The position numbers and the translations under genes were made by a program. 64,000 nucleotides of DNA from Prostheceraeus crozeri. Its lineage: Eukaryota; Platyhelminthes; Polycladida; Euryleptidae. The notes beneath the pieces were generated by a model. The model had not been told where the DNA came from. It ran no database searches and saw only the letters and a program-made list of their open reading frames with translations. Location of the stretch: assembly GCA_907163375.1 (NCBI GenBank), contig CAJQUW010015666.1:62001-126000 (forward strand). Reading direction: 5' to 3'. This document shows, piece by piece, positions 2,729-58,300 of this stretch; position 1 is the stretch's first letter, and every line of letters begins with the position of its first letter.

Positions 2729-2787
2729 TTTGGCTAGCAAATGGTCAGACAAATGACTGTACATTAACTGACACCGGTCAACTAGTG

Positions 2788-3496
2788 GGTAATTCATAAT
2801 TGTGGAAGGACTTTTTCAAAATACTAAAATTAAATAAAGAAATTCGAGACTGAGCATACTGCTGGAAAACTTTATCTTTAGAAGGGCAAGAGAGTAAGTG
2901 TCTGGTTACAGAAGAATTAGGAGGTTTTTGTGATCTTGGCCTCTCGCCTCTTTGAGTCCATTTTGGGATGTGTTCTGACACTCGAGTCTGAAGGTGCCTC
3001 TCCGTTCTGTCGATGTACCCTGCTCCGCAGGGGCAATCAAATTTATAGATCAAAGAATGTCGATCGGCAGTTGGTATAGGGTCCTTGTGCGCGGATGGTG
3101 CCAGCTGTTTTGTTGAGAAAACTGGGTTTGGGTCCAGTTGCATATAATATTTCCGATTTCTTTGGAAATATTTCGTGCGATGATTTCACTTTCACTCCCA
3201 TAGTATGGGATTTTGAAGAAAATGGCTTCTTCTTAACCGTTGGGATCTTCGATTGTCATCTTTGTATTTAGAGGGTTTGCGAATAAACCATTCAGGGTAG
3301 CCATTTTTTATCAAAATTTCAGTTATTCGTTTCGACTCCTTGCCAAGAAAACAAGGAGAACAAAGTCTATGAGCCCGATATACCTTTGTTTTCACTAAGT
3401 TTACCTTATATTTTCTTGGACAATAAGCCCCATAATTTGTATATATTCCTGTAAATGTTTTCTTTCTGTACATCGATGTCAGTATTTCTCCATTAT
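2788..3496 (-). pseudogene. Penelope-like element: RT C-terminal/linker and GIY-YIG endonuclease, decayed
   Basis: Two minus-strand frames read as one PLE polyprotein segment with a frameshift near 3190. The upstream part (3496 to 3192) gives KTFTGIYTNYGAYCPRKYK and EILIKNGYPEWFI, the linker after the reverse transcriptase. A frame change restores AIFFKIPYYGSESEIIARNI. The downstream part gives YKFDCPCGAGYIDRTERHLQ then TRVSEHIPKW, the GIY-YIG endonuclease core, with the second Y-x-G seen as GYID. The RT palm is missing upstream, where the sequence flips into the inverted copy at 3497. It is non-functional. Confidence 0.85.
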
Positions 3497-3945
3497 GCGG
3501 AGCAGGGTACATCGACAGAACGGAGAGGCACCTTCAGACTCGAGTGTCAGAACACATCCCAAAATGGACTCAAAGAGGCGAGAGGCCAAGATCACAAAAA
3601 CCTTCTAAAACTTCTGTAACCAGACACTTACTCTCTTGCCCTTCTAAAGATAAAGTTTTCCAGCAGTATGCTCAGTCTCGAATTTCTTTATTTAATTTTA
3701 GTATTTTGAAAAAGTCCTTCCACAATTATGAATTACCTATTCTAGAAAGTGTTTGTATAAAATTCTTAAACCCATCACTTTGTGTACAAAAGGAAGGATT
3801 GTTCAATTTACGTCTACTTTGACTTTTTACAGATATCTATGAACACAAACGTCATGCATGCTTAATTCTCTTTTCAATGAATGTTAACTCCAATTTCTAT
3901 GCATACTCTAAAACAATAATCACAACTGCTGCATTAATAAATATC
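3497..3945 (+). pseudogene. Penelope-like element, inverted 3' fragment (GIY-YIG C-terminal half and 3' tail)
   Basis: The copy starts at the GIY-YIG core (GAGYIDRTERHLQTRV) head-to-head with the minus-strand copy and runs to the 3' tail near 3945. It is highly similar to 2788-3030 and to 124-336 read in reverse. The frame is open 3544-3822 (to ESVCIKFLNPSLCVQKEG). It is the uninterrupted reference showing that the two minus-strand fragments were once joined. Confidence 0.85.
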
Positions 3946-9859: not shown

Positions 9860-10640
9860 AATATTGCAGGGTCTTTAAGGTCCCCTAACAATCTGCATAG
9901 CCCAGTTCGTAATTTTAAAAAGCCCGCACATGCTCTTATCATTAACGGTGCCGGTCTCAATACTATAAGCCCCTTACCATCTCAAAAGGCCCCTCACGAT
10001 CTTTAACGGTCCTGTTCACTATCTCAAAAGGGCATCCTCACTAACTTAAAGGGACCCCTTCACAATCTCAAAAAGGCCCCCTCACCATCTTAAAGGGGCC
10101 CCTACGCAGTCTCAAAAGGGCATCCTCACGATCTTTGAGAGGCCTCTTCGCAGTCTCAAAAGAGCCCCTTCACGACCTCAAAGGGGTCCCCTCACCATCT
10201 TAGAAGGGCCCCTCACGATCATAAAGGGGCCCCTTCGCAGTCTCGAAAAGATCCCTTCACGATCTCAAAAGGGCCCCTCACAATCTTTAAGGGAATCCTC
10301 ACAATCTCAAAAGGGCCCCCTCACGGTCTTAAAGGGCCCCTTCGCAGTCTCAAAAGGGACCCTTCACGACCTCAAAAGGGCATCCTCACCATCTTAGAAG
10401 GGCACCTTCACCATCTCAAAAGGGCCCCTCACGATCATAAAAGGGCCCCTTCGCAGTCTCAAAAGGGTCCCTTCACGATCTCAAAAGGGCCCCTCACGAT
10501 CTTAGAAGGCCCTCTTCACAATCTCAAAAGGCCCCCCTCACGATCTTAAAGAGGCCCCTCACCATCTTAGAAGGGCCACTTCACAATCTCAAAAGGGCCG
10601 TTTCACAATCCTGAAGGGCCCCTTTCAAAATTTGAATTGT
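9860..10640. repeat. About 25 bp minisatellite, TCACGATCTCAAAAGGGCCCC
   Basis: Roughly 30 degenerate units run over 780 bp with alternating CTCAAAAGGGCCCCT and CTTAAAGGGGCCCCTTCGCAGT forms. It lies near the right end of the nested element. No ORF. Confidence 0.85.
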
Positions 10641-13886: not shown

Positions 13887-14667
13887 CGCTCTTGCACAGT
13901 CCTCTGCTTGTTCAGAAATTATTATTTGCTAGCTTGGGTCATTCCTAGATGTACTGACGAACCTTTAAAATTCAGTGCTTTAATTTCTCAACTCATCTTT
14001 CGAAAGTCTCATGTGTGCCGAGAACATGTAACGGATTTAGTACTAATAGACCATTTTTTGTCAACAACTCAGAGAGAATTTGCTGGGTTTTATGTCATTG
14101 ATAGATTTCTTGGTGGGGTGCCAATTAAATTTAGAAATTTAAGTCCTTTTCTAAATGTCTTTTAGCTGTGCTCTGAAATCATTGCTCACATCGATATTCT
14201 TCATATCTCAATCGATCTACATTTAAAAGCCTTTGATGACTTGTAATAAATGATTTATTGCTCATTAATCTGAAGTTCATTGTGATATTCGATATCAACA
14301 TTCAGATATGATTTCATGACATTCTCAAGCATGCATAATTGCAAATGAGTTAGGTAACCAACACAGAATGGTTATTTCTGCTTAGGACATCCAGCGCTCC
14401 CTAAGAAAATTGATTAATCGGCATATTGCTATCGTCAAATGTGAAAGAGTTTATTATTCAAGTAGCATCAGCTCACACCAGAAAAAAGCCGCTTATTTGT
14501 AGATAAAAATTAACATAAGCTGTACAAATAAAATCAAAAAATAAATTTAAAGAAGGAACAATTCCTCCTCAAATATTATCCCATCTTGTTAACCATCAGG
14601 CATGCGCTGCTCTCATGCCATCGGTCGCAAACTTTGGCAGCTATAAAGACACAAATTATTCAAGACC
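13887..14667. other. No gene recognised
   Basis: An open frame at 13869-14165 has no recognisable domain or codon-level support. The rest is AT-rich. Confidence 0.5.
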
Positions 14668-15697
14668 ATAGAGTAGGTATATTAGGTAGAGTGGTAACTC
14701 CGCATTTATTAAATCCCCAATGTGCATTCACTTTTGATTTTATTAAATTAACTCAAAGAAGATACAGTTTGGAATTGTTTCCAAATGTGAGATATGGAAA
14801 TTTTTTGTAGTTTTGCAGAAATTGCAACGGAATTGAGTGATCATGATTGTAATGCAGAAGGAATGATGGCATTTTACAGATTCTCAGTGTCATGACAGCC
14901 TTTGCGATTTAATGCTTGTTAAATTAGCAATTCGAAGAGTTCCTATTACTTTCATGCTCAACCTCAAGAGTATTTTCTTAAGCGTGATTATATCACAGGC
15001 AACCTGCCCACTGGTTAGGAGCAAAATCACATTAATTGAAAGAATAATTAATTATCTTTGGAAGATGCAAATGGGTCCCACATCACCATTCAGATTCAAG
15101 GGATTGAAAGGAACGATTCATTAAAATCATGGACGGTTGAAAATTCATAAAAAAACTTGAAATTTCAGCCAAGGAAAGCACGAATATATTATCACGACTT
15201 TTTTCCTCAAGACTTCCATTATACATACAATTTCATGAAATTCTAACTTGATAAATCAGCTTGATTTCCGCCTAGTTTGGGATTGGCTTTTTAGCAAATA
15301 TTTCATTCCTTTTCAAATCCAACTTGTATTCATATCTACTTATATAGGAGTGGTCATCTCGGTAGTATATTTTAATTGGCAAAAATTTTGGTACTATTTT
15401 AAAACTGCTCAATATTCTTTTGGCCCACGGGATCGTAATCTCCCACAGAAAACTGAATCTTTTAATATAAAAATTTTCACTGTTATACAGATACTTTTTT
15501 GAGTGGTCGCCCAATCTGCCTATATATCCTACTCTAGATACTGATCAACTGTTCTAATGAAATGTGAATTTGATCAAAAATTCATCAATCGGTGCACATC
15601 GATATAAACCTTTGAAAAGGTTTATTAAATATTAGTGTGTCTATTTTGACGATAAAATTTTCTTAAAAATACGTTTGGCCATACCCGCTGTTTGGAA

Positions 15698-16146
15698 TAA
15701 TGGAGTTGATTTGTGCTAAATAGCCTTGCGGGTTAATAAAAATAAATTTACTCGTCTGTTGAGTAATTTTCGATTTAATCTGCGTCAGACTCTTCACATT
15801 TGATGAAGGCATGGAATAACAAGAGCTTTATAAGAAAGATTGGTCACTTCACAATTAGGAAGATTCTCTGATGCCCATCAATCCGGCAGGGTGTTCAAGT
15901 TACATCACCGCCTTGGATATTTTCACCGCCTCCTGGTGATGAGCGGTCAGGCAAAAACGCGGTGTGAGGGGCGAACGATTTTTGTTCCTTGTCTTTTGTC
16001 ACAGGTGGGTCGGTCTGTTGACAAAAATCTATAGCGTTGGCGGTTTCCCATGCAAGCCATTCATCAGGTTGCTTTCTTTGGCGTATGAAACATGCCTCTA
16101 ATTGGTAGGGCGGCGTACGATTGCCACTTTTTCTTTCCCTAGGATC
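15698..16146. repeat. PLE inverted terminal repeat, left copy
   Basis: It matches 19616-20034 in reverse, from ATAATGGAGTTGATTTGTGC inward to CTTTCCCTAGGATC, with scattered indels. The short frames in both copies (e.g. 15840-16034, 19668-19868) are shadows of the repeat. Confidence 0.9.
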
Positions 16147-16206
16147 ATCCATTTGATTGTGTGGTCGTTGTTTGTTGCCATGCTGCTGAAGATGCTGGTG
16201 GGACAT

Positions 16207-17335
16207 GCGATGAGGGGGGGGTTTTGTTTGTTGGTGTAGTGTAGTTGTGATTTGAAATTGAGTTTTTTTTTGGGTTGGTTGCTTTTTTTGGACGGCGTTT
16301 TTGGGGTAGATTAGAGATTTTATAAGGGTTAGTTTTTTTTTGGCTTTGGACTGTTGATTAGTTTGGGTTTATATGGCTATTTTGTGGTGGAAGTATTGTA
16401 AATATGAGGATCATATTAACGATTGTATATTGAGATGGTTGTGTTAAGTATGGTTGGCCATTTTTTTTGTTTGGATTGTGGTTGGTTGTTTTTGTGTTTA
16501 TTTGTGGTTTTTGTGGTTATTGTTTCCGGTTAATGATTGTTTTTTTTGGATGGTAGTGTGTTATGTGGTTGTTATATCTAGAGGGTTGTTTTATGTTTTT
16601 TATTTATTAGGTTTTTTGTGTGTATGTATATAATTGTATGGTGATGTTGTTAGATAGGACGCTCTGACCTTGTGTTTGATTGGGTTTTTTTTGTGGGTGG
16701 CTTTTTGGTTTGATTTTTTGGATTTGGTTTTGGGTTTTGGATTAGTGATTGTTTGTTTGGGCACGGTGCGTTGATTTTTGTTGTTGTTGTTTATAAGTGG
16801 GGAGAATGTTGTTATAGAGAGTAGGTAATTTTGCATTATAGGGGGTGTGGCAATAGTTATTTGGCTATGTGTTTTTTGATTTAGGAAGTCATTATATAGA
16901 AAGTTTCTTATAGAGGATTTTGTTGTAAAAGAAGATAATATGGGCAATTAAATTGGAAAAAATTTTAAGATGGTAAGAATTAAATGGTCAAAGTCAAAAA
17001 TTCAAAAAAATAAAAAATTAAATCTAGAAAAAAAAAAAAAATTATAATATATAATATAAAAGAAAAAGAAAAGAAAAGTGTTGAATTCAAATAATGAAAT
17101 TCGAAAAATATAAAAAAAAGTAATAAAAAGTTAATTCAAGAAAAAAAAATGATATTCAGAAAAGTCAAAAATTATTAAAAAAAGTAATTGAAATTCATAT
17201 TCATAGATTATGAGAAAATTCAAATTATAGAATAATAAAAAATAGAGAATAATAAATATAAAATTAAAAATAAATGAAATTAGATAATAATAAAATTATT
17301 TTGAATTTATAAGAATAAGTAAAGGAAATTCAACA
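16207..17335. other. Strand-biased low-complexity block inside the PLE
   Basis: From 16207 to about 16955 the plus strand is almost free of C and rich in G and T. From 16956 to 17335 it is A-rich with few C or G. The change at 16207 is abrupt, just inside the left inverted repeat. The long minus frame at 16600-16947 (Thr/Asn/Lys/Pro-rich) is a product of this composition. This may be genuine decay, strand-specific hypermutation or an assembly artefact. Confidence 0.8.
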
Positions 17336-19420
17336 TGTTCTACATATTCGGAGAACGGGCAGTTTTCTCTCCACTCTTGTCGAATGTAACACTGCTTTGC
17401 AAGTTGGGTGGGGAACACATGATTTTGTACACAATATGCTTAGTAAAGCACACTCCCTTTTGAAATAGATTGATGTCTCGCAGGCTAGGCATTGTTTGGG
17501 GCAATTTTTGCACATTCATTCTTTGGTCTCAAAACTTCTTCTGAACAGGGGAGGCTCTGGTAGTGGTAGATAATGCGGATGTCGTCGTGTTGTAATATAA
17601 ATCAGTCTCTCTGAAGTATTTTGCTCATTTGTTTTCTCTGCCCTCTCGTTAAAGTAAGGGAATTTTTAGGTAGGTAGTTCGGTGGGGCTTCTCTTTGATT
17701 CGCTTGCCGTTTCTAATTTTTGACTGAGTAGGGATGTTGTGGTCAATGAAGTTCTCAGGATAGCCGTTTCTCTGGAACGCGTCTTTCATCTCTGATAGTG
17801 CTTCTTCGGCATTCATGGGACTGGTTATTTGGAGGGTTGCGATGAGTCTCTGCTGTGACGAGGTTGCGCTTTCTGCTTGCGGGTACGGTAGCTCCATACG
17901 GTAGACATGCCTTCCACTGTGGGTTGGCTTTACGTATTTCTTGTAGGGTATCTTGACCATTTTCTATTCGTACCTTGGTATCGTGGAAGAAACGGTAATT
18001 CATTTTCTTCTGGTGCTTCGTAGGTGAAAGTGTATGTTGGGATCCACTACATTTGCGTAAATGAGTAGTTCTGTTTACGTCCAATACTGACGTTCCTATG
18101 AAGAAGACATCGTCTAGATACCGTCTCCAGAAGATAATGCTCGGGATAACGTCGCAGTATTTTCCCTCATCCAATTGGTCCATGAAGATCGTCGCCAGTG
18201 GTGGAGCGGCCACAGTTCCCCATGGCTATGCCTGTCTTTGGCTGTCTGAATTCACGCTCAACAGGTACCGATCTTCCGTAGAGACAAAGCCGCAGGAGTT
18301 CCTTCGAAGTGCTCTGGTTCCAAATCAGGGAATATAGAGTCCTGTCTACTTACGGCTTGAAAGTTTGTTCGCCACTGATATCAGTCCAGGAGTTGACTCT
18401 CACCGTCTTCTAATGGTATGCTCCGTATGAAGATTTGGAGACATCTAATGACCCAAAATGGACATTGTTTTGGAATTTCCAATTCTTTGATCGCGTTGAT
18501 GAAAGTCCATTGTTGAGGACAGTGATGTTCGGAATGTCCCCATACTTCTTGATCATTGTGCTGCAAGTGTTTTGGATAGAAGCTGTGCAGGGGCCCTGAC
18601 GATAGAGCTTTCACTTGCGATTGATTGGTCTTCCTTTCAGTGGTCCAGCCTTGTGATCTTTGGGCAGAGGTCGTGGGGTGTACTTGGAAGCGGCCTCCGA
18701 AGATTTGCACCGTTCGATTAAGGCTTTCGTTCTGCTGGTCGGATATTGAGCGGCTATCTTCGTTAAATTACCATTGTACTTGATTTGTCGTTGACGTTGG
18801 GAGAGAATTGTCTTGAAGCTTTGGTCAATCAGCATTGAGGGAATTTCGCACTAAAGTGGAGGAGTAGTCTTCCCGGGTTAAGGTCACACCAATTTCTTTG
18901 TTTTGTCGGATTGTGCATAAATCAGCCATATCCTTCTCTTTGATACCTAAAATTGTTTGCAGCTCCTTTGAACTTTTGGGGCATTGTTGAGATTGTACTT
19001 GACGTGATGCGGTCGGTGGCGCTGAGGAACTCTGTAAATTGTGCAGAGTCAGCGAGACGCGGATTTCGCCATCGCATTCTCTCGTAACAAGCTTGTAACA
19101 TCCGCCTTGTAGAGGTAAATTTCGGTTTTTCACTGGGGTCTTCGAAGGTTGCGGAACGTATGCGGGTCCTTTGGAGAGCAGCGTTTGTTCTTCAGCCGTG
19201 AGCCGTGAAGATAACTTCCGTTAAGTTCGTGAAAGCGGTCGAGTTTCTTTTTCTCCACTCGGTCTTCGTTTGCTACTCACCCAGGATGTTCGTTAACTTT
19301 CTTCTCTTCGTCTGCCTTAGTTGGTAAGCGTAATTCTTGAGGATCTTGTAGTCTGCTTCCGTCAAAGGAGTCGTGGTTCCCCTCTCCATAATCTTCGCGT
19401 TGTTTTATAGAGGCTGTTTA
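17336..19420 (-). pseudogene. Penelope-like reverse transcriptase (with remnant GIY-YIG region), frameshifted
   Basis: In minus-strand order: an N-terminal block near 19210-19140 (LTAEEQTLLSKGPAYVPQP, the usual PLE start), then KEIGVTLTREDYSS, the RT finger block PKDHKAGPLKGRPI near 18640, and ITVLNNG. Near 18235 GIAMG leads into AAPPLATIFMDQLDEG, and the catalytic box WRRYLDDVFFIG lies near 18130-18090. After the RT come EKMNYRFFHDTKV-like sequence and AFQRNGYPENFI. Around 17440, VYKIMC resembles the start of the GIY-YIG domain, which is then lost in the low-complexity block. At least five frameshifts make it non-functional. It is a different PLE family from that at 2.8-3.9 kb. Confidence 0.85.
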
Positions 19421-19615
19421 TCGCGCATTGCAATCATTGTCTCGAATGTTTTTTCACCAAGATTTCACTTTCATCTCTGCTTCCTTCGATTGTATGTATG
19501 ATCTTGTTTGCTGTAAGGAGTCCTCTCGGGATTATCGCTCGTCTTCTGCATTCTCTCAGGAAACTTAGATGACTGTTTATTTTCTCGAGTTCCTAGGGAA
19601 AGAAAAATTTCTCTC

Positions 19616-20034
19616 TGATCCTAGGGAAAGAAAAGTGCAATCGTACGCGCCTAGCATTAGAGGCATTTCATATCGCCAAAGAAAGCAACCTGATGAATGG
19701 CTGCATGGGAAACCGCACGCTAAGATTTTTGTCAACAGACCGACCCACCTGTGACAATAGACAGGAACAATCGTCGCCCCTCACCGCGTTTGCTGACCGC
19801 TCATCACAGGAGGCGGGGGAAAATATCCAACGGTGATGTAACTTGACACCCTGCCGGATTGATGGCATCAGAGAATCTTCCTAATTGTGAAGTGACAATC
19901 TTTCTTATAAAAGCTCTTGTTATTCATGCCTTCATCAAATGTGAGAGTCTGACGAAGATTAAATCGAAAATTTACTCAACAGAGTATTTTTATTTTATAC
20001 CCGCAAGGCTATTAGCACAAATCAACTCCATTAT
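19616..20034. repeat. PLE inverted terminal repeat, right copy
   Basis: Inverted partner of 15698-16146, on the 5' side of the coding region. CCTAGGGAAAGAAAA is duplicated just inside it (19592 and 19621). Confidence 0.9.
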
Positions 20035-20114
20035 GTCTATTTGACAATTAGCTAAGTTGAGAGATAAAAGACATAATGCCTTCGCCGGATAGGTTTTATC
20101 CTTACTCTATGGTC

Positions 20115-21328
20115 AAAACCAGTTATGACGAACGGCGATACTTTGCAGCACGATATTAAGTATGATTGTTTTCCTAGCACATTTTAATGAACAGTTAGGT
20201 GTTTCATGAGCAAAAGTATCAAGTTTCCATTAATCAATGTTGCAATAAAGAATTTAGGCCTAAGTAAGCTTAGTTATGCATGTTGCAATGATGACAATCT
20301 AGTGTCTATGCGTGCGGTGCTGCTACCCGCATGACACGGCGAATGCTGGCAAAAATGGAATGGATTTTCAATGACATCAGCTATTTTCGTGATAATTCAA
20401 TTAATCTGAAGTAGGCCTATAGTGTGAAAAGAGGTCATATTATTCTAAATGCTGAATCCGTTCGATGATGAATTCCATTTGAAAAAATAGTGAGCGAACT
20501 AGTACATTAAGTTAATGAGCAATTTCTTTACAGGAAAGACGAATGCTTAAACTATCTATGGGTAACACAATCGCCATCGTCTAAAACCTTCACACATGCA
20601 TGATCCGTAGTGTTCTCAAACATCTGTGTAACATTTATCGTGCTAATTAATGATTCAGAGTTAATCATGCGTCTCTTCAAGTAGTAGGTTTGTTGTAAGG
20701 GAAAGCTCCCGCTCCTCTCTGTTCAGTTTCTTAGCTTATAATTATCGAGCTGGTAATGTTCTGAATCTTTGATGTTTTGAAAGTGTCTTAGTTAGTAATT
20801 TAGCATATGAATGTTTCCGACTTCTCCAGAAAAGTACTATCTTCAGTTGAATTCAAAAATATCCGGTGCTGCTGATGTCATTCCCATGTTCTCGTCTGTA
20901 AACAGACCGTGTCTGGAGAAGGCAAAGGTTTGCGCAGAATATTTATCGTACCAGTACCTATTTGAACTATTTCTGCTTTTAACTCTACATAATATAATTT
21001 GCATGTTTTTCTTAAATTATAGCCACTACTAACCCACCTTCTTCTTCTTCTGTAACGGTTCATGTGCAGACGAAAATTTGGGAATACTTATTCAACATCA
21101 ACAGCATCAGCAATTTCCTAATTCAATGAAACTTAACATAATCTAAGCAGAATTTATCTGGTTTAAATGACTAACATGATAATATACATTATGCACCTCA
21201 ACGTTTTACTGAAACTTTTACAGCGAAATCTGCTTGCAGGATGTTCAAGAGATGATTGGTCTCCGATAATTGATGTCGTCGAGTCAAAATGGTCTTTTTA
21301 AAGCTGTCCGAGAGAAAACCGCAAAACA
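20115..21328. other. No gene recognised
   Basis: Downstream of copy A and beyond the RAPGEF-like polyadenylation site. The short frame 20811-21032 has no domain. Confidence 0.6.
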
Positions 21329-31300: not shown

Positions 31301-34300
31301 ATGCAAAGCCATTTCCAGTTGTAATGTCAGAGTAAAACGAAATATCTCCAATTGCACAATCAATAAAGTGCGCTACATTTTTGTATTTTAGATATCTATG
31401 GGTCATCATTTCTAAACGAAGAGAAACTCTCGATGCGCTGACTTATCACATCTTGAACGATTAATAGTAATAAACTGAGCCAAGTTTCCAGCATGACAAT
31501 CGTGTTCATGCAGAAAATACTGCCGCGTTGGGAGTTTGTCGTCGAATGTCTTCAAGACTTCTCTCAATTTGGCAATCTTAAGTTGTTCCCATGTCTTCGT
31601 GATCTTTCGGAATGAGATTTCTGTTTGGAGGTGCATTAAGTCAAGCAAGTTCGCAGACAAACTGACGCGGTCAATCAGTCAGTCGAAATTTATCTTTCAA
31701 TAAATATTCTAAAGGAAACACTGTAAGAATGAATGCGAAATTGCAAAGCTTTCACGAAAGTCTCGGAGTTTGAATTATGCAAGCGATTAAGAGAATAGCC
31801 GCTGCAATCTCATTGAATCAACCTTCTATAATTAATTTCCATAAGAATTCCCTCTACCTACATAAGCAAATTTAGCCCCTTCGAAATTCGCAGACATTTC
31901 CATTTCTGAGAAATAGCAACAACTAAAATACGAAATGCAATGAATTACTATTCACTTCACATAATCAGTTTGTGTCTTTAAGCTGCTCAGCTATTCAGGT
32001 CTGAAAAATATGCAACTTCTCTTCTCCACCCTATGTGACATCTATGCAACGTAACTGTCGAATGAATTAGCTCCCGACTTCCTAATTTGCTTTCACATTA
32101 AACAAAAAGAACTGTAATATGAAGGTAAATCGAGAATTGAGATACCAATGATGAAAATAATCTGAATACGTCCATTCAAGCGACATTTAACACATTACAT
32201 TTGTTATTTCACTGTGTTTTGACATGAGAACTGCTAAATATAGTACATGAATCAACTCATTGTCTTCCAATTTCATTTAGAAATAGGTCAACAATGCAAA
32301 CAAGTTATGTAAGGCGTCTGTAAGAACTGCCTTGATGTCACTGAGGGATTGTCCATGTAGAGAATGTTAAGAGGTCCTACATGTAAACATTTGAAGAATT
32401 TGAGATCAAGTGCATCTAGTGATCGAAACCTGCTCCTTGGCAGCGAAAGCAACGTGACCGCGCGAAGAGCCTCAGAAATCCTAACACCATGTTTGCCGAT
32501 TATCGACAGCACTCCTTCAGGAATGTCGGAAATACAGAAATGTGCTGCCGCGAAACGTCATCTTTCTAACCACCCATCACGGGCATGTGTGACACTTGTT
32601 TGGTTAATATCTGCCACCAACCATGCTTCATTAGATTACTTTCACAGCACCGAAGTAGCGCAATGAGTGAGAAACTCTCGTGAAAGTCCTCAACCACCAA
32701 ACAATTTGGAATTGACGATTTCACCTCTATTGGACAACATGGGTGACATTGCAAATGAAGCGATAGTCCATTATCTAATGTTCGAAGATACTGATCATAG
32801 AGTAGGTATATTAGGTAGAGTGGTAACTCCGCATTTATCAAATCCCCAATGTGTATGCACATTCCATTTTATTAGACGAACTCGAGGGGAATACACTTTG
32901 TAATTGTTGCCAAATTTTTGCATTTCTGAAGAAATTACAACGGAATTGAGTGATCATGATTGTAATGCAGAAGGAATGATGGCATTTTACAGATTCTCAG
33001 TGTCATGACAGCCTTTGCGATTTAATGCTTGTTAAATTAGCAATTCGAAGAGTTCCTATTACTTTCATGCTCAACCTCAAGAGTATTTTCTTAAGCGTGA
33101 TTATATCACAGGCAACCTGCCACTGGTAGAGCAAAATCACATAATGAAAGATAATTAATTATCTTTGGAAGATGCAAATGGGTCCACATCACCATTCAGA
33201 TTCAAGGAATGAAATGATCGAATCATAAAATCATGACGGTGAAAATTCAATAAAAAAACTTGAAATTTCAGCCAAGAAAGCACGAATAATATCACGACTT
33301 TTTTCATCAAGACTTCCATTATCATACAATTCATGAAATTCCCTTGATAATCAGCTTTATTTCCGCCTAGTTGGGATGCTTTTTAGCAAATATTCATTCC
33401 TTTTCATATCCAACTTGTTTCATACTACTTATATAGGAGAGTCATCTCGGTAGTATATTAATTGGCAAAATTTTGACTATTTTAAAACTGCTCAAATATT
33501 CTTTTGGACCACGGGAACGTAATCTCCGCAAAAAACTGAATCTTTTCATATAAAAATTTTCACTGTATACAGATACTTTTTTGAGTCGACAATCTGCCTA
33601 TATATCCCTACTCTATGATACTGATCAACTGTTCTAATGAAATGTGAATTTGATCAAAAATCATCAATCGGTGCACATCGATATAACCTTTTGAAAGATT
33701 TATTAAAATTAGTGTGTCTATTTGACAATTAGCTAAGTTGAGAGATAAAAGACATAATGCCCTCGCCGGACATTTGATAAAGGATGTAAATTTGGGAAAG
33801 CCAATTGTCTGTGGTAGGTCTGAAATAACTTGTTTTCAACATCACACGATGCATTTCAATCTTATGATCAAGGTTGTCTTCAGGTGACAAATTATTTAAG
33901 GTTCAGGAGACCAGAATTGAAAAGCGAAATCGTAAATTTGCTAACTTGCGTTTCATTCATTCTTCAGTCCGTTATTAAAGCGTTTTTCATTGACGTCGTT
34001 TGTTGCTTGACAGTCGATAGATTTAAAATGAGCATTGATACTGACGGTTTATTCCGACGTCTCCACAGGCAGATAAGGGAATACCGTACACAGGAACTCA
34101 TTTTGTTCATAATAGGAGCAATAGTAGAATCTTTTGAATGAAAAATCATGTTTTCCGAATTCAGAATTGAAGTACAGGAAAGATGGAGAACACGTTTTCA
34201 GTCCCGGGTGAGATTCTAGGGGCTATTTTCAACAATTCCGCACTTACAAACCTATTCCATATTTAGAGGCAATTATTTTGGCAAGACAATTTCATGGGAA

Positions 34301-46300: not shown

Positions 46301-49300
46301 TATTTCAGCTGAAACATACGTATGAAATGTGCATACTATATTTAATATGTATGATTTCACATATGAAATGATATTATCATACGCATGCAATTTTCATATA
46401 CCGTCATACTATAATTTATACCCTTTCCATTTCTGTACGGGTGATCATCTGTGCTCGCTGAAAAAAGGGTAACCGGCTAAATGCGTGATTGAATTTGTAT
46501 CGTTAGTCTAATTAAGTTTATTCTTTTAATAGATTTTAATATATTTGGAAACGCTAGTCGATACATAAGTGCCATTGGTTTGGATGACCTTCCTGTCATG
46601 ATTTACTGTGAGGCTTTCGAACTCATCACTTAGCTTTGCCTTTGACTTTCATTCCACTGATGCCCTTTTCTCTCAGTGGTAGTGTTGTTAGAATTTTGTT
46701 GGCATGATTTTGGAATGATATCATCCTCAACTTGGTGTGGATGAAGGTGTATAAGCAACCTTCTGAATTAAATTGTGATATTCTTAATTAGATTATTTAT
46801 TGCTCAAAAAGTTGTGTTTTTGTAAAAACTTTTTTTAAAAAATAATAGCCACAAATTGCTTCTATAGAATGTGACGATTACCTATTTGGAAAACTTTTAG
46901 CGATTTCACTATCAGCGACCAGTCAACGACATAACCATCGCATTACAGATATTTTTTAAACAAATTTATGAAGTCTTGAACATTCCGTCCAGATGTTGTG
47001 CTTATTTACTTGACTATATCAATCAGCATTCGAAGACACTCAGTAGAAATAATGGGCTTAATAATAGTCACATTACTAGTGGCTGAAATCAAAAAATTAT
47101 GCTCATTGAACTTAGAGATAAAGTTCACGAAATGACAATTCCCGGGCTATTTAAGGGCTAATTGACTATTTCGCTAAAATTTAAGGGCGATTCTCGGGCC
47201 CCAACAAAATTCCCGGGCTCGGCCGCCACCCTGCTTAAAGCTAGACTTAGAAAAAAGTAATCAAAAGAAGTTTCCAGTGTCAAACAATAGATGGTAGCAG
47301 CAGAACATGCAGCGAGCTCTTTTTTTTGTATAAGACCGATTATGGTTCAAGCGCAGTGGATCCAGAGATAAGAAATTTTCTTTCTAGAAAGTCGCAGGTA
47401 AGAAATATCTAGAATATCTAGAAACATAATCATGCTTGAGCAAATAGAAATGGCGAGACGAAACTGATAGACAGAATATCGACGTGACGATCAAAGACAG
47501 CAAGCACGTGATTAGAAAAGCGCGTATAAACTGCCACGAATAGTTGGCAATCATACAAAAAAATTTTTCAAGATTTTGCGGATGCAATCTTAAGATTTAG
47601 ATCTTTTCGAATGCAGTGCAGAGATCAGATCAAGATGATGTGGATGTCCAGCTTTGGATAATATGTACCTGAATTTCAGTCGAATGAATCTGGAATAAAA
47701 CATGCGAAACAATCGTTATGCGTCGAAATTCAGTTTGAATATTTTTGTCGAACTTTCTAGAAACGATAAAAAGTTGTACAACTGCAAAAAAACTTAGTAA
47801 CAATAAGAAGACCGAACTAATATTTCAAGAAACCGAAGGGAACATTAGAATTCTATTTCCTGAAGTTTAAATATCGGATATCTGAAAGGTCATGCTGTAC
47901 GGCAAAGTTCAAAATATAGTAGAGCGAGCGTCCGCAATCTCCAAACGATTTTTTTAATATTCATACAAAACGTTTTGATTATTTGACTATGAAATTCAGA
48001 TTCTTGTAAATATATTTTCATTCAAACAACCTGCTGAAAGGAGTTGACACACAGGTACAATTATATACATTGTTCTATGACAAATAGACTAACCGACATC
48101 TTTGAATTGAATACATCTGTCGATATCCTTTGTTATGAAACTTCAATGTCGTTTTTCAACATTTATACCCCTGGTCAACTATCTCAACAAAGGTGTATTA
48201 TGTAAAAAACAATGTACATCGAACATGCACGATTGCTATGCATTAGAGAGTTGTCCTCGGACGTGAAAAATTTAAACACAAAATTCTTTCGGAGCTATAG
48301 ACGCAGCACCCCCAAGACTACCAAGGAAGAGTGCTTAAATTGTTCAAATCCAGAGAAAGTCTTCATATCCTATACCCAATTAGAGAGCTGACACTCCGCA
48401 AGTTTCGGCTACATATGCATATTTTGATCAACTTTTCACCATCGAATAAGTTGTCTCCATTTAAGGAAATCGTTGGAATGATAGCAATTTCACATGGTAG
48501 AAATATCAATTTGGTCTTCTCATATCAAAATAAAGTTTATCATAATTTACAAATATATCATTACCGGATTCGATGCGCCAAAAGGGTGTAATGGATGAAC
48601 AGCATGCGAAGGACAAGCGAATCACTTTGAAGTGATATAAATTACGAGCTTCCGGCCATGAAGTCTGACTTTACGACACGCACATGTAAACAGCATTCGA
48701 GAACATCATCAATGACTCACACCAAGCAAATACAAAGGAATTGTCATGCAATACATCCACGCAACAGCCATTAAGATACATCAACTTACGGGATTTCTGA
48801 TTGTTTTGCCGAGATTGCTCCTTTTGTCGTTCGATCGCCACATTGTAGGGTGGAGGCTTTCGCGCGTCAGTGACGCTGCTGCCCCCGCTGCTGCTCGCAC
48901 TGCTGATTGTGCTCCCGGGGCTGGTCGTGGCGCCCTTTTGTGCCGCGGCTGATTCCACACTGGCGGGCAGACTGGGAGTGCGTGAATGAGCGTTCAAGCG
49001 CTTAACTTCGCGTGGCTGTTCGGGGAGGAACATGTGTCGAGACTCCTTCACGTTGCTCGACAGGCTCAGCAATTTCCGTGCGTCGTCCGGGTTCTGAGCA
49101 CCCAATTTCCGACCAGCGTTCAAGTCGACCACATCAGCTGCACCAGAGGAGCCACCAGGATTCGACTTCTTCGCAGACTGTCGTAGAGACTCAATATCTT
49201 GATCACTCTTTAACTGTAAACGATTGAAATATGTCTCGATGCGTTTCCCAATAAGCCACTTCTGATATAAGGCGTTGGCCTGGCGTGTAGCTTGACTCCG

Positions 49301-52300
49301 AGAGCGGCTGGCGCCAGCGCCATACTTGATAGCGCCACTGGACTCGCCATTGTTGGCACCGAGGGGTAGGACGGATGATTCGTCAGTGGATGAGCGTCGC
49401 ATTGACTCAACGTCATAGTTAATTTCACACATGCGTCGATAAGAAAGTACAGCTTCCGCATACCGGCGAAGAAACTGAAAGTTCACCAACGTTGGTTGTT
49501 CCTTACTGTGCAAGTCGTTACTATCGTGGATGCTAAACAAGTCTTTCTGGAGAACACTGACAATGGGGATAGTGGGAGGAGGGTCATTTAACAGTTCACG
49601 ATAATGCTTAAAATTGCGATCTGGCATTATCGTTTTTTGCATCACTTCGAACGACTTACGCAATTTGCCCGATAATTTGTCCATGAATTTGAGGCACGGC
49701 AGTCTCGAACTATTAACGGCGGTGAGAATGGCGAACATGGAATTGAAATTGCGAAATTTACGACACCATTTGGCCACATGAATGAAGAATTTTGCAACTT
49801 CAGGACGGGAGCTGGCATCTGCAGAGGCAATCTCAGATAACACCCAGCGATGCTGATGTTCCTGAGTGTTACAAAAATTCGTATAATTAGCGTACAAATG
49901 CGGCGATTTCTCACGGAAGTATCGACATACATACTCACTAGCGTTCACACGCTTAAACTTTTCAAAGTCATCTAATGTCAATTTGATGGCTAATTCTCGA
50001 GGATCAATCCGTTCACAGCCATCCGATTTTTTGATGGATACTCGAGAATCACGCCAAATCTCCACGGCAACTTCGTCAGAGATAACCGGTCCGGTGGAAG
50101 TCATACTTTTCAAGTAATATCTATCATTCAAATTAATGCTGTTCATTAGATTCGTCGCATGTTCACGAAGAACACTGACACACACGGTACGTCCACTATT
50201 CACAGAGACTTTAGAGAGACGATAGAATTCCTTCGGAGACAAATTGAACTCCTTCACAGCCAATTGACAGACCATATCCGAAGTCGCTTCCTCGTAAATC
50301 GGAATGAACTTGTCGATGTGGTTAGTGCCTCCACCAGGATTATACCACACACGAACCACTTGGTCCAATTGATGCCATTCTGGGAAGATTTTGTCAGAAC
50401 AGCCGCCTAATCTGCAATGTGAGAAATCGTTGATGATGAATGGGGGAGAAGCAAAGCGTATAAAAAATGATCAAGTTGAACAACAATTGAATTATATCGC
50501 TTTTATCATTTACATAATGGGGAACGCGGCCGCAACTGTTGCAATCAAGTGAAAATTAATGAATGTAAGAATCATAAGTTTTGGCGCCGTACAAACAAAC
50601 ACAAACAGGGAATTGCTATTTCTGGTGCACGTGCACTCATCGATATACGCGCAAGGCATTATTTATCGTGGGAGCAAATCGTGAGAATGCAATCCCAACC
50701 CTCTGATGTAATGTTGTCCCATCAACTACTACTAAACTTTCTGTATCGCAGATTTTCCTTTCCAACAGAACTGACAAAACACTTTGCTACTGCTGGTGGA
50801 CGTTCATTTTTTCTCCCTCCTAACTTACCTCCAACAATGAAGGCAGCTGGGATATCCCATAAATGCGACGTGCTATCCGCCGACCACATGGTAAATATTA
50901 CAAGATGTTCACATCATCGTTAAAAGAACATCGCAATCTTATATCTTCATATCATGAAGACTTTGTTCCGTTAATCCAAAGTTCCACTGGTCTGACATTT
51001 CGGACACATTTAGAAATCGAATTATAATTTTACAATCCTATATATTCACAACAGTACCATCAAAAAGCCAATCGTCAGGCAACTTTCGTCAAATCAATCA
51101 AACATCTGTAGACAAACATGATGTCTGATTGATCAGACAAAACGTGCACAAGCGAAAATTGATCTTGCCGCATTTTCGGTGCTGATGTTCGAAACGGCAT
51201 TATTACGCAAAATTATACGACATAATTATTACGGCAACAAGAATTACCCAATATGACTAAATAGGCTGGCTGTTGCGAATCCTATTTAAAAACAAGTTTT
51301 CATGAAAACCGAACATGCTCCGGTTTTAGAGCTCCAAACGCTGTCGCAGCCTTGCCAAACAGATGATTGTGTCTAGATGAAACCATCATCGCTAATAACC
51401 AGCATCCGACAGAAGAATCAGGAACAACGTCTCCGCAGTAACGAATCAGTATAACAGTCTTCACAGACTGTGAAAAAAACACACGATTGCAAATAAAGCA
51501 GCACACTTTGGCCACATTCTGATCTCTAACTACGCTTCCATGTGACAATACCACAAAGCCATTTAGCTCACTTAATCCGATGTTCCGCAAATCCACGTTC
51601 CATATGAATAAGCGTATAGTACATCTCAGATGCGGGACTGACGCGCGGAAGCCTAGAAAAGCGAAATTATCCCATGAAATCCTGGACAATCGGCAGGATG
51701 CCACAGAAACTTCTCGTGCATTATTCTAAACGCAATTGTTCTAATTACAATTCTTTCAACATCGTCATTCTATTTACTAGACAACAAGATAATAGTGTGC
51801 CATGTGTGAATGAGCGGTTCACTGACATGACGGCTGTCTTCACGACCTCTGTTGATCTAGTTTCGTCATTATGACTGTGTGACCATGAATCTGCAATCTG
51901 CCATTAAAATAGCTTACAGGATCACTCAGATGTTGTAAAAACAAGTTCAGCGCACCTCAATCCTCTTACACATCTTCAAATCATCGTCATTACAAAATCA
52001 ATGGAATTTCTTTTACATACCCGAAAGACTGATTATCAGTATGGTCACTGCCATTAATGCTTCGCTGCTGCTGATGGACAGGTCCCTGGCTTTCGTTTTG
52101 GTGGTCCTTCAACGCCTTATCATAGCCTCGCAAGTCGTTTTTCACTAACAAGGCGATTTCGTTCTTGGCAATCAACCGTTTTCGCGCTACCTCGCGGGTA
52201 ACACACGTGACTGAAACATCATTGACCTTCAGAATACAATCACCAACTCTCAAACCCTTCACACGCGCCTTGCGTTCCACCTTCGACACGAAATGCTGCG

Positions 52301-55300
52301 ATCTACCATGATTAATATTGGTAATGAAGCAGAAAAGTGGCTCACTGTCCGAGCCCCTCTCTAAAGAGACTAAACGTTCACTAGCGTTGGAACTGCAAGC
52401 CAAATATAGCAATTCCAAGGTCTGATCCCAGCGGGCGTGATCCTGTACATGCTCCTTCATGGAACGAATCTTTCGGATGAAATTCTCAAGGAAATCTTGC
52501 AACTTCATGTCCTCTTCGAAGTCATTGAAGCAAAGATTCACCCACTTGGGAATCACACGAATCAAATTGCGTAATGCATTCGGATTATCCAAAGCGCGTG
52601 TGAAGAATTGAACAACAGGTTGTGGTGTGTCCAAGAAAGTCCGATACATAAGAAAGAAAATGTCTTCGTAATTGGCATTGACTGCAGATTGAGGACAGCA
52701 TAATTGTTCGATCAGTCTTTGGACTGTGGCCTGAAAAGGAAAAAAGGGATTATCAACTCAAGCTTTAAAAGAGAAGATGAATGACAAGTAGACATCAGAA
52801 GGCGCCAACTGCATTAAAGTTGATGAAGACTCGCCTTATCAATATCGCTATCACTATAAAGAGACTGACTACTTAATACAAGAACTAGAAGTTAGATATT
52901 AACAGAAAACATCAACGTCGACAACAGCATGAATTTCATATTTTCGAAGTAAAATTATTATTTCTGATATATCAAGACATGGAAATCATTAGAGGAAATT
53001 GAAATGTGTACAACGCGGGAGTCAGTAATCGAACGAAATACAAATGCCAGGAATACGGTAATAGAGGGAAATTATGGAGAATAACACGTTTCAAATATTT
53101 CAATTAGAAGGAGGCGATCTAAAACCAAGTACTATTATTTTCATGCTGTAATTATGGGCGCTATTGGGTGAGGAGTCACTGATCAAAAGCCACTCTATCG
53201 ATAAGTATCCCTCTACCTGACGATGAGACGCCGTGAGTCCTCTTTTTTATTTGGAGGGACGACATACTGAGGAGACGAACTTAAAAAACGGGGTCGTGCT
53301 AACAACTCATCATTCATATTAGTGCGAATGTGCTGCCAATTTCGTCTGATTAATCAGCAGGTCTACGGCACATTAAACGCAAATTTAGCTCAGCAATGTA
53401 TGATTTTGGCAGATTAGTCTTTCAGTCATCTTTTCCCGATATGCATCGACCTCAGTACACCATATCTGCTTCACAAAAAAACACTGAACAGTGGATTGTA
53501 ACATTACAATCCGCCATATACTATTATTGCATTGTTTAAATTTAGTACATATGAAAGTCATTTTAGGAATTAATCATTAGGTCATGGTAGAAATAGAAGT
53601 CCTAGTTGTTGAAATTGAAACAATCATTGCTTTGTGATGTACTAGTAGTTAAACACTGATTACAGCAGTTTCGTCGTAATTCTGCAATATTACTATTCAT
53701 CTTCTACCAATTGATTCACTTATTCACCATACGTGAAGTGCCCTTTCTTCTATTACAGTTATCGAAACTGATGTACTAATGCATTATGCCATACCATTCA
53801 TGCCATGAACAAGAATTTCGATTGACATCGTTTTTAGAAAATTTATCAATACCCTTTGCATTCCAGTTCTCATGATATTTCAATTACCGCTTATGTTTAC
53901 CAACAGAAGTCTCATATGCGATCTCAATATGACAAATTACATGAAGTGGAAGTATTGACATTTCGTTTAGTCTATTTATTCTTTACACGGTAACTACAAA
54001 AACAAATTTAACAACGCCTGGTATAAATTTATAAAGCAAACTTAACCAGCATAACAAGAGACTAAACAGAAAATCAACACACATCCTACTTCGTAGTCTG
54101 CAAATTATTTACTTGCATTCCTCATATAACGTCCAGATATGCTACATTCCTCCCTCCTTATCGGAACTCGTATTTGGTCGTAGGAACTGGTACTGTGGCT
54201 TGTGCTGTGTGTGATGCCACGATTTATTGGGACCATCCTCCAAATGATCATTTTTATACCATTTAAGATTTATTTCCCCAACAGAATAATATTCATATTT
54301 CATCAATCACTTTCATAGACGAAATAATCTATACGTGCACATACCACGAAAAATGAGTCATTTGCTAGGTATACAGGGTTGGTGAAACACGTTTTTAAGG
54401 AATGGAACAAGCATATTTTTCATGTATTTTCAGTTGCGAAAAACGTCGAAAACTTGTCTGATTCTGAAATCATAGAAATTATAGGTTAAATGCTTCATTT
54501 TCGTCTTTTGACGTCGAAAAACTAGAAAAGCATACTACATCAACACATCTACCAAAAAAGACGACGATTTGTTTGAAGACTTGTTGTATAGATGTGCATG
54601 TATCAGGTGAGCTCATCTTAGCCTAGACTTTAGTCGCCCCATGCCTTTTTATTATCTAGAAAGTTTAAAGCAAACTATGTAGGTTAATATTGAAATTATC
54701 AAAATTCAGATTTAACTGAAATGCAATAACTTGCATTAATTTATATCAAAAGACAATTAACAATAACGGTTTGATGAGGATCACTGCCATCTCAACTGCT
54801 CTTTTTCACGTAGGTATCAGTCAATAATCAGCAAATCATAATTATGCTCATGTATGAAGGCCTAAGTATCTCAGAATTTCGTATTTAGGCCTACCTCATT
54901 GATGCCAGTGAACCATACATTTGTGTATGGACATGCACTTCACCAATGACTTCACAACAGTCGTGAAAGAGCAATCGGTAGTAGGTTATAGCAGCATGAA
55001 AGGTGGAGGCGCTAACAATTTTTTCATAAGAAGGGCATGAACGCAATGATGAAATTTGATGCAGGGGCTGTCAACTTTTTTAGGCCAAAATCGAGACGCC
55101 GGTGATCAAAAATCGGGACATTCCGGGAAGCCGGACATTATTGGACATCATAAATGGCGACCTTTATCACAATCGTCGTGATAACGTCATACTGAGCTCT
55201 GCCTCATTTTTCAATTGTCGATAAATTTCTCTGTTGTTCAAGAACACATTTAAATACTTGCAATTAAATATTATGTAATTTTCGCCTTCCCTTGAATTTA

Positions 55301-58300
55301 CACAATGATCATGTTGGTTTGCGTTTTCCCTACATTTCTTATGACTTGAAATCATTTTTGCATGCAACATGTTCACTCATTGGATTACATTATGTAGGGC
55401 ACCAAACGACTGATTCTAATGCATGTTGTTTTTTGTATCATTTCAAGAGTAAGTCAGAGTCATTTACATCATATTCTCCCAAATCACACAGGAGTGGTTT
55501 ATAAGTTAAATGTTCCAATCTTTTAAATATGCCAACCCAATATTCCGGTAAGTTAAGTTGAAAACAACCTAACTTGATTTATTCATTTACTTTATTATTT
55601 ATTCATTCTCATAAAGATCGACATTAGATTAAATAAAAAACGAATCTTGTGGATGTTTATGAAAGTTAAAAATATAATTGTGCCATTACATAATCACCTC
55701 GTCTTATAAATGACAGCAAAAAATGATTAAAACCTCTTATGGTCACAAAGAACGATTTACTTCAGATGCACTTGCGAGAAGGCATATATATCATGCATTC
55801 TAAAAATGTGCGGAAGCAAATAGTCTTCCCATCTTTTGATGATTCTGGAGATGGAGTAATTTCTGAACATTCAAAAGCCTACTGCGTGTAGATTTTGCTC
55901 TCCTTTGTGAAAAGAGCTGAAAGTTACAACATGCTAGTCAAGCAATGAAAATTATGTAGAATTATAAATATCTGGGTGACATGTGGAATCAAGACAGATC
56001 TTAATTGTATTAGAACTTGGCAGAAATTTACAGATATCCATAGCTGCATGCTTGCAGCGCTCCAAAGCTTCCATGTCGAAAGGGGGGAAGCTTCCCACTT
56101 TCAGGGTCAGCAAGAATATAGCAGGACGATCATGCGCGGTACGCGTTCCTTTTATTAATGAAAAAATCTTCTCAACATCGGCATTGCTGTCAAGGACAGC
56201 GAGTATCCCAAGCATGCACGATGCGAGAGAGTTGTAGGATTGATTCCTTTTGATGGAATCTTTTAATTGCTCCAATATGCTCAGCTTCACATCTGCTCTC
56301 AATTGGAATACATGCAACTCTTTTGGAAAAGGACTACTTTGATATCTGAGTTTTTTTTCAATCCAATATTTGTATAGCCCATACTGCACAACATATTTCA
56401 AATTTTCGAAATTGACAATGTGCCTGATTGAAATATCCGCAACTCCCACAATCATAATGAGGCTTTCGCACTTTGATGTCTGCTTGAACAGCTCTGACAG
56501 TTCTTGGTTTTCCAATTTCGGCAAAGCTTTGCTGACTCTGCCGCTAAATTGAATTTTATCATTTTCAATCTGAATCCTGAAAAAAAGAAGCCAGTCGTTG
56601 TGAAGATGTGCTTGGTACGTACAGTACTTTATATGGTAGGTTCTATCATGCGGAGAAATCTATTTTGTTGGTGGAATAAACTTTCGTCATAACTATAAGT
56701 TTCCTACTGCCGTAAAACTTACAGCCGAAGGACAACACAAACATTTGCCGGAAAATACAAGATAATCCCAAACGGACTGGGTTGGGAAATAATCTGAATT
56801 ATGTTGATGAGTCTGATTCAATGCCAGAATATATCGAAACCAGTAATACAGGTCAGGTAGACGCAGAGATCATCAGTCTCATTGTTTAAAAAGCAACAAA
56901 ACATTACCAATGAAATGCTAAATTCATTCGATCTATTCTGTGTTGAAATAGACTCTAGAATCGAGACGTAGATCTGCTAAATGCTGCCTTCTAACATTTC
57001 CAACGACACTGAGTTCACAAAATACCAGCATGCACTTGTTTATATCAATATATTCATCTTTCTCTTGACTGTAGACCTAAGGGACTCTAGGATGACTATT
57101 AAATCATGACATGACTTCTTCAGCAGACTGCATCTTCGCATGACAGAACTTCTACAGCAGGCTGTGTATTCGCATGACATTTCTTCACCAGGCTGTGTAT
57201 TCGCATGACATTTCTTCACCAGGCTGTGTATTCGCATGACATGACTTCTTCACCCGGCTGTATATTCCCATGACATGACTTCTTCACCAGGCTGTATATT
57301 CGCATGACATGACTTCTTCACCAGGCTGTGTATTCGCATGACATGACTTCTTCAGCAGGCTGTGTATTCGCATGACATGACATTTCTTCAGCAGGCTGTG
57401 TATTCGCATGACATGACTTCTTCACCAGGCTGTATATTCCCATGACATGACTTCTTCACCAGGCTGGATATTCGCATGACATGACTTCTTCACCAGGCTG
57501 TATATTCGCATGACATGACTTCTTCAGCAGGCTGTATATTCGCATGACATGACTTCTTCACCAGGCTGTGTATTCGCATGACATGACTTCTTCAGCAGGC
57601 TGGATATTCGCATGACATGACATTTCTTCACCAGGCTGTATATTCGCATGACATGACATTTCTTCAGCAGGCTGTGTATTCGCATGACATGACTTCTTCA
57701 GCAGGCTGGATATTCGCATGACATTTCTTCACCAGGCTGTGTATTCGCATGACATGACTTCTTCACCAAGTTGTATATTCGCATGACATGACTTATTCAG
57801 CAGGCTGTATATTCGCATGACATGACTTCTTCAGCAGGTTGTATATTCGCATGACATGACTTCTTCAGCAGGCTGGATATTCGCATGACATGACTTCTTC
57901 ACCAGGCTGTGTATTCGCATGACATGACTTCTTCAGCAGGCTGTATATTTCCATGACATGACTTCTTCACCAGGCTGTATATTCACATGACATGACTTCT
58001 TCACCAGGCTGTATATTCGCATGACATGACTTCTTCAGCAGGCTGTATATTCGCATGACATGACTTCTTCACCAGGCTGTATATTCACATGACATGACTT
58101 CTTCACCAGGCTGTGTATTCGCATGACATGACTTCTTCACCAGGCTGTATATTCGCATGACATGACTTCTTCACCAGGCTGTGTATTCGCATGACATGAC
58201 TTCTTCACCAGGCTGTATATTCCCATGACATGACTTCTTCACCAGGCTGTATATTCGCATGACATGACTTCTTCAGCAGGCTGGATATTCGCATGACATG

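What the first reader, a model, noticed from the sequence alone, without database searches (positions are those of the whole stretch)
15651..20034. Penelope-like element with inverted terminal repeats, one-sided tail, target duplication and an in-window empty site
The repeat at 33.7 kb keeps GTCTATTTGAC once, while copy A has it on both sides of a 4.38 kb PLE. This fixes the element borders to the base, with a 46-bp tail on one side only. Such paired filled and empty sites are rare for PLEs with inverted repeats and directly show how they integrate.
Basis: partly seen in the sequence, partly recalled or inferred. Interest (0 to 1): 0.7.

Follow-up and report, generated by a model that had tools for sequence, protein, structure and literature searches.

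The report
Two-ended retrotransposon copies, one tail
The window holds a copy of a common kind of animal jumping gene (a Penelope-like element), and its sister copies suggest that it inserts by copying its RNA from both cut ends of the DNA, which would explain the odd mirror-image shape.

Summary
In detail: 15651-20034 is a Penelope-like element (PLE) inside a repeat whose empty copy lies near 32796-33770, with a 12-bp target duplication. Three details change. The "inverted terminal repeats" are the outward 3' ends of two head-to-head, independently 5'-truncated copies of one 2.74-kb unit. The "tail" is the start of the ORF after the pLTR. The 4.38-kb length is probably inflated: about 14970-19590 is rich in inserted bases and holds a 1.1-kb low-complexity stretch not seen in sister copies.

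In 24 complete insertions exactly one end has a tail, and 22 have a duplication of 12 bp or slightly more (a palindromic assembly, L055, was dropped). Both ends show short homology to the target, and either half may be the longer. This favours two-sided target-primed reverse transcription from two start sites 28-40 nt apart, one per end. Arms mostly share a source, which fold-back would also give, so that rival is not excluded. Inverted pLTRs, tails, duplications and an empty site are already published for PLEs; the one-tail rule and the test against self-priming are what is added.

The parts
14668..15650 (+). left part of the host repeat (target), ending in the left copy of the 12-bp duplication (15638-15650, with one extra T)
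   Evidence: alignment to 32797-33723; duplication read
15651..15696 (-). tail: start of the PLE ORF as it follows the pLTR, read on the - strand (contains ATGGCC..)
15697..16218 (-). outer pLTR of the tailed half (unit positions 2242-2742), insertion-rich sequence
16219..17326 (.). 1.1-kb low-complexity stretch (GT-rich, then A-rich) between unit positions 2242 and 2241, inside the endonuclease codons; not seen in sister copies; probable assembly or read fault, possibly a real insert
17327..19591 (-). coding body of the tailed half, unit positions 85-2241 (N-terminal region, RT, start of GIY-YIG-like domain), broken by many inserted bases
19592..19615 (.). head-to-head junction with 24 nt of filler, part of a 28-nt direct repeat with the pLTR sequence beside it
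19616..20034 (+). tailless half: 5'-truncated pLTR only (unit positions 2311-2741), ending at the pLTR 3' end without tail
20034..20045 (+). right copy of the 12-bp target duplication TGTCTATTTGAC, at the start of the right part of the host repeat (20034-20089)
32796..33770 (+). empty paralogous copy of the host repeat; uninterrupted target site at 33715-33726

Best explanation
This is one copy of a young PLE family that inserts by two-sided target-primed reverse transcription. The element's endonuclease makes a break with a 12-nt stagger. Both released 3' ends anneal by a few bases to sense element RNA and prime reverse transcription, one at the pLTR end (site A, unit 2734-2742) and the other 28-40 nt downstream in the start of the ORF (site B, unit 2770-2782). 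The two cDNAs grow toward each other, stop independently, and are joined head-to-head by end joining. Shown here: anatomy, one tail per complete insertion, duplication length, homology at both ends, unequal truncation in either direction, arm allele content. Inferred: the enzymology, the overhangs, use of two RNA molecules, and the reason the two ends use different sites (for example two protein subunits in unlike states).
For: One tail per complete insertion in 24 of 24 (23, L064; L055 dropped, see Tried and rejected). Shared flank string of 12-17 nt in 20 of 23 plus L064 (14 nt), and 12 with one inserted T in the window; exactly 12 in 14 of 23. At these 14, homology between target and unit averages 1.5 nt at the tailless end (9 of 5000 permutations as high) and 2.0 nt at the tailed end (0 of 5000). 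Tailed half longer in 8, tailless longer in 10 (one of them, L060, by 21 nt only), within 20 nt in 4, tandem in 2. In L056 the arms differ at a 12-bp indel and at unit 2628, both of which vary among other loci. Junctions of 22 insertions by BLAST boundaries: 4 overlap by 1-2 nt, 2 blunt, 16 with 1-34 nt of filler. The anole PLE protein cleaves and extends both strands in vitro and starts at two sites that bound the tail (PMC11167929, main text).
Against: Arms of one insertion mostly share a source: they are closer to each other than to other insertions in 18 of 21 rated, and both arms share at least one non-majority base in 12 of 22 (L055 included). Self-priming would give this too; two RNAs from one locus must be assumed. 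Four insertions have near-equal breakpoints (L031, L035, L037, L059), as fold-back would give. The two-template case is thin: in L056 the tailed arm begins at the edge of the indel (unit 2593), the 2628 allele recurs only in L055, and gene conversion is possible; L048 differs at one shared site only. L048 and L060 show no target duplication. L043, L049 and L050 show only one half. The anole work saw no difference in start site between strands.
Confidence: 0.6

Rival explanations
1. Self-priming (fold-back): one cDNA, or an antisense transcript, folds back on itself and primes its own copying, giving a head-to-head inverted repeat that is then inserted. This is the reading preferred for Adineta vaga Penelope elements.
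For: Arms usually share a source (18 of 21 rated; 12 of 22; the window's arms share a 12-bp absence). Four of 24 insertions have breakpoints within 20 nt of each other. The authors report palindromes at inverted junctions (PMC3846280, Discussion).
Against: Fold-back of the tailed cDNA requires the tailed half to be the longer, but the tailless half is longer in 10 of 24. It does not predict exactly one tail in 24 of 24, nor target homology at the tailless end. L056 arms appear to carry different alleles.
Confidence: 0.22
2. One-sided target-primed reverse transcription from the tailed end, followed by a template jump or end joining to a second, separately made cDNA or to an existing copy that supplies the inverted tailless half.
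For: Filler and short overlaps at the head-to-head junctions resemble end joining. L049, by eye in the flanks printed, looks like a one-half insertion with about 25 nt of filler before a 12-nt repeat of the target; the automatic test of that call looked too short a distance to find it.
Against: At 14 insertions the tailless outer end falls in a 9-nt zone of the unit (2734-2742) and shows homology to the target, which a captured fragment would not be expected to do.
Confidence: 0.13
3. Fixed inverted terminal repeats that a recombinase or transposase recognises (DIRS-like or DNA-transposon-like element).
For: Inverted arms at both outer ends and a target duplication.
Against: Arm length varies between insertions from about 60 nt to whole units. 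The only Pfam family found in the intact 839-aa ORF is a reverse transcriptase, E 4.3e-9.
Confidence: 0.02

Closest known systems
Endonuclease-containing Penelope elements of Adineta vaga (PMC3846280; 12 passages and the Discussion read)
   Same: Inverted pLTRs, head-to-head arrangement, optional tail (31 bp in Pen2a) on one of the inverted pLTRs, 8-10 bp target duplications in some copies, pLTR overlapping the ORF, one documented empty site.
   Different: Here 22 of 24 complete insertions have a duplication of 12 bp or slightly more, 24 of 24 have one tail, and the truncation pattern argues against the self-priming preferred there.
Poseidon PLE of Anolis carolinensis (PMC11167929; abstract and main text read)
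   Same: The tail lies in the ORF start and is bounded by two internal reverse-transcription start sites; both target strands are cut and extended in vitro; AT-rich targets.
   Different: A hammerhead ribozyme is reported there and none was found here. No strand difference in start site was seen there, while here each complete insertion uses the two sites once each.
L1 twin priming (recalled; titles and abstract openings seen)
   Same: Both target strands prime reverse transcription and the halves are inverted.
   Different: In L1 the second primer lands at variable internal sites (recalled); here it starts at a fixed site near the first, so the halves overlap and form inverted repeats.

Membership tests
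Penelope-like element | Single ORF with reverse transcriptase | tested here: met
   Intact 839-aa ORF in sister copy L033; RVT_1 E 4.3e-9, 36.8 bits against a cut-off of 29.6. The window's own broken piece reaches only E 0.13.
Penelope-like element | PLE-type branch of reverse transcriptases in a phylogeny | not tested
   No PLE reference proteins turned up in the searches made; placement rests on anatomy and motifs recalled.
Penelope-like element | C-terminal GIY-YIG endonuclease | tested here: inconclusive
   VYKIMC..YIGQSERTARSRILEH read by eye in the L033 ORF (motif recalled); no GIY-YIG match in Pfam at E up to 1.
Penelope-like element | Tandem or partial-tandem units forming pLTRs, frequent 5' truncation, inverted pLTRs | tested here: met
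   tandem units in L032, L033, L038, L039; head-to-head halves, mostly truncated, in 17 of the 20 regions L031-L050.
Penelope-like element | Tail of about 30-40 bp that belongs to the ORF start | tested here: met
   Tail 28-40 nt at 14 insertions; the same sequence runs on into the ORF in full units.
Penelope-like element | Hammerhead ribozyme (frequent in PLEs, not defining) | tested here: not met
   No hammerhead match in Rfam at E up to 5 in window 14000-20600 or L033 1500-5000.
DIRS-like element | Tyrosine recombinase and no target duplication (features recalled) | tested here: not met
   Only RVT_1 found in the ORF by Pfam; duplications of about 12 bp are present.

The most novel reading that the evidence does not exclude
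PLE integration is asymmetric and two-sided as a rule: a dimeric complex with two RNAs, usually from one source locus, primes from both ends of a 12-nt staggered break, and the two subunits use two different start sites on the RNA, once each. The tail, the inverted pLTRs and the head-to-head dimers of PLEs would then all be products of one reaction, unlike LINE or LTR integration.
Probability: 0.38. Interest if true: 0.7.

Novelty: new member of a known kind. Interest (0 to 1): 0.42.

Why it matters
How PLEs insert is an open question. One published reading favours self-priming on an antisense template; an in vitro study shows cutting and extension of both strands with two start sites. This young family offers many near-identical insertions with target duplications, so the two readings can be told apart from sequence. 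The one-tail-per-insertion pattern gives the tail a meaning (a record of which of two start sites was used) and yields a direct prediction for the purified enzyme.

Tried and rejected
Rejected: (1) Tail as host sequence: full units show it is the ORF start. (2) Fixed inverted terminal repeats: arm lengths vary. (3) The 1.1-kb low-complexity stretch as part of the family: in the other 29 loci printed (some are two ends of one insertion) the pLTR runs straight into the body. Its first 746 bases (16200-16945) have no match reported elsewhere, and its A-rich part matches other A-rich DNA, nearly always at 65-80%; that search scored 40 of 173 candidates and skips simple repeats, so this does not prove it unique. 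(4) L055 as an insertion without any tail: its two flanks are reverse complements of each other, so I took it for a palindromic assembly or duplication and dropped it; counted, the rule would be 24 of 25. (5) Hammerhead ribozyme: none found.

Led nowhere: protein relatives in genome contigs and viral contigs, solved structures. Passages of PMC8969392 and PMC12910113 held no account of the mechanism; the comparative PLE paper of 2021 is not held. A count of empty host-repeat copies across the genome was not obtained.

Left out of the 24 complete insertions: L038 (probable allele of L032), L039 and L045 (probable alleles, outer ends not mapped), L029 (same flank as L031, tailless half only), L018, L025, L042, L044, L057, L063 (an end outside the stretch), L043, L049, L050 (one half only), L023 and L062 (tailless half lacks its 3' end), L055. 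Sampling: L031-L050 were chosen from the 42 matches, whose query contained the tail and which scored 40 of 213 candidates. L051-L056 were chosen because both ends lay close together. L057-L064 (8 loci) are single entries of the listing picked without knowing the layout, not in strict order: 7 of 8 are head-to-head, the eighth (L063) was not fully seen; 5 of the 8 have both 3' ends, each with one tail. The listing showed 100 of 205 matches.

Full report
CHECK. Copy A of a host repeat (14668-15650 and 20034-20089) is split by the element, while copy B (32796-33770) is intact. The pre-insertion site reads TGTCTATTTGAC once in copy B (33715-33726) and twice around the element (15638-15650 with one extra T; 20034-20045). 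Inverted arms are confirmed. Coding sequence lies on the - strand from 19591 to 17327 and reads, in broken frames, RYLDDVFFIG (an RT motif by recall) and LSFLRECRRRAIIPRGL. The tail, read on the - strand, contains ATGGCCAAACG, which suggested that it is the start of an ORF.

GENOME. The window lies in a 2.05-Gb assembly. A query of tail and pLTR gave 42 matches with 40 of 213 candidates scored; a 27-base pattern at the pLTR 3' end occurs 205 times with up to 2 mismatches, against 0 for the reversed control. In copies that continue (L006, L015, L027), the pLTR runs into CAAACTCGGGT ATG GCC AAC GTA TTT AGA AAT TTA TTG ATC and on into the ORF, apart from single-base variants, so the tail is the first codons of the PLE protein. 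L033 holds an intact 839-aa ORF whose last 289 nt (stop included) lie in the pLTR. Pfam finds RVT_1 at E 4.3e-9. A GIY-YIG-like motif is seen by eye but Pfam does not report it.

ANATOMY. One unit is a 2242-nt body plus a 500-nt pLTR. Mapping it on the 20 regions L031-L050 and the window shows two units or truncated units head-to-head, 3' ends outward, in 17 of 20; L043, L049 and L050 show one half only. The six regions L051-L056, chosen for close ends, are head-to-head too, as are 7 of the 8 regions L057-L064. Truncation points differ between the halves. In the window the tailed half is nearly full length (unit 85 to tail), while the tailless half is only unit 2311-2741. So the inverted terminal repeats of the finding are what the shorter half leaves.

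RULES ACROSS INSERTIONS. For 24 complete insertions (23, L064), one end carries the tail and the other stops at the pLTR end, in 24 of 24; L055, without a tail at either end but with mirrored flanks, was dropped. Flanks share at least 12 nt in 21 of 24, and 12 with one extra T in the window; L048 and L060 show no duplication. Fourteen of the 23 share exactly 12, six share 13-17, where chance matches to the element ends can extend the string. None of 506 mismatched flank pairs reaches 12. At the 14 exact cases the tailless end falls at unit 2734-2742 and the tailed end at 2770-2782 (tail 28-40 nt), and the target shares 1.5 and 2.0 nt on average with the unit at the two ends, against 0.79 and 0.65 in permutations (9 and 0 of 5000 as high). 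Head-to-head junctions of 22 insertions, by BLAST boundaries: 4 overlap by 1-2 nt, 2 blunt, 16 with 1-34 nt of filler.

ARMS. The two arms of an insertion are closer to each other than to other insertions in 18 of 21 rated; L053, L054 and L056 are the exceptions. Differences between arms are nearly all private, and both arms share at least one non-majority base in 12 of 22, so the arms usually have one source. L055 looked the strongest case (11 shared), but its flanks mirror each other. In the window both arms lack the same 12 bp of the pLTR, a state seen in L051, L057 and one arm of L056. In L056 the arms differ at that indel and at unit position 2628, whose minority allele recurs only in L055; its tailed arm begins at unit 2593, at the edge of the indel. 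In L048 the arms differ at 2380, a common polymorphism. This hints at two templates in some insertions; gene conversion and recurrent mutation are alternatives.

MECHANISM. The published proposal for head-to-head Penelope copies is self-priming on an antisense template, with a sense template not excluded (PMC3846280, Discussion). Fold-back of the tailed cDNA would make the tailed half the longer; here it is longer in 8, shorter in 10 (L060 by 21 nt only), within 20 nt in 4 and tandem in 2. The in vitro anole study shows both strands cut and extended and two start sites bounding the tail, with no difference between strands (PMC11167929). Priming from both ends, once at each site, fits the genome data best. 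The rule of one site per end is not stated in the text of these two papers that I read (passages and Discussion of the first, main text of the second), and nothing in the listings of searches pointed to it; most subscription papers are not held.

ASSEMBLY QUALITY. Against the unit, window 17327-19591 has 115 inserted bases, 7 deleted and 45 substituted; 15652-16218 has 45 inserted, 15 deleted and 10 substituted; 19616-20034 has 0 inserted, 1 substituted and 12 deleted, the last being the shared 12-bp absence. The host repeat shows 40 inserted bases from about 14970 on, none in 14818-14967 and 16 in the first 150 bases. The 1.1-kb stretch 16219-17326 (C 4%, GC skew up to 0.79 on the + strand) lies inside this patch and is not seen in the other 29 loci. 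It is most likely a fault of reads or assembly (inference); a real low-complexity insert is not excluded, since A. vaga Penelope elements have asparagine-rich inserts (PMC3846280).

VERDICT. A genuine, well-bounded PLE insertion; a new member of a known kind. Its worth lies in the family, which allows a sequence-level test of how PLEs integrate.

Noticed in passing
window 2778-3560, - strand: A second, different PLE remnant: an ORF reading SLIYKFDCPCGAGYIDRTERHLQTRVSEH (GIY-YIG-like by eye) with an upstream piece that matches this element's linker weakly (E 0.006). Pfam gives no match.
   Followed up: partly
window 32788-33625: The left part of the host repeat looks like a small DNA transposon: ends CATAGAGTAGG / CCTACTCTATG flanked by ATACTGAT on both sides (8-bp duplication, hAT-like by recall; read). 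Copy A keeps the right flank but not the left, and a further TACTCTATG lies at 20103.
   Followed up: partly
window 16219-17326: C-poor, GT-rich then A-rich stretch with strong strand skew in an insertion-rich patch of assembly; no match reported elsewhere for the GT-rich part (simple repeats skipped).
   Followed up: partly
L055: Head-to-head element whose two flanks are reverse complements of each other: a palindromic duplication or a fold-back assembly fault.
   Followed up: no
L043:5100-5500: An element copy interrupted by an inverted, tRNA-gene-like sequence (GGTTCGATTCCTAGG motif by eye), perhaps a short interspersed element.
   Followed up: no
window 48671-62991, - strand: Pieces of what looks like one RapGEF-like gene: RasGEF, RasGEF_N, PDZ and cyclic-nucleotide-binding domains.
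   Followed up: no
window 10139-10549: Open frame made of short amino-acid repeats (GPFTISKGPLTILEGPLHN-like), probably a minisatellite.
   Followed up: no
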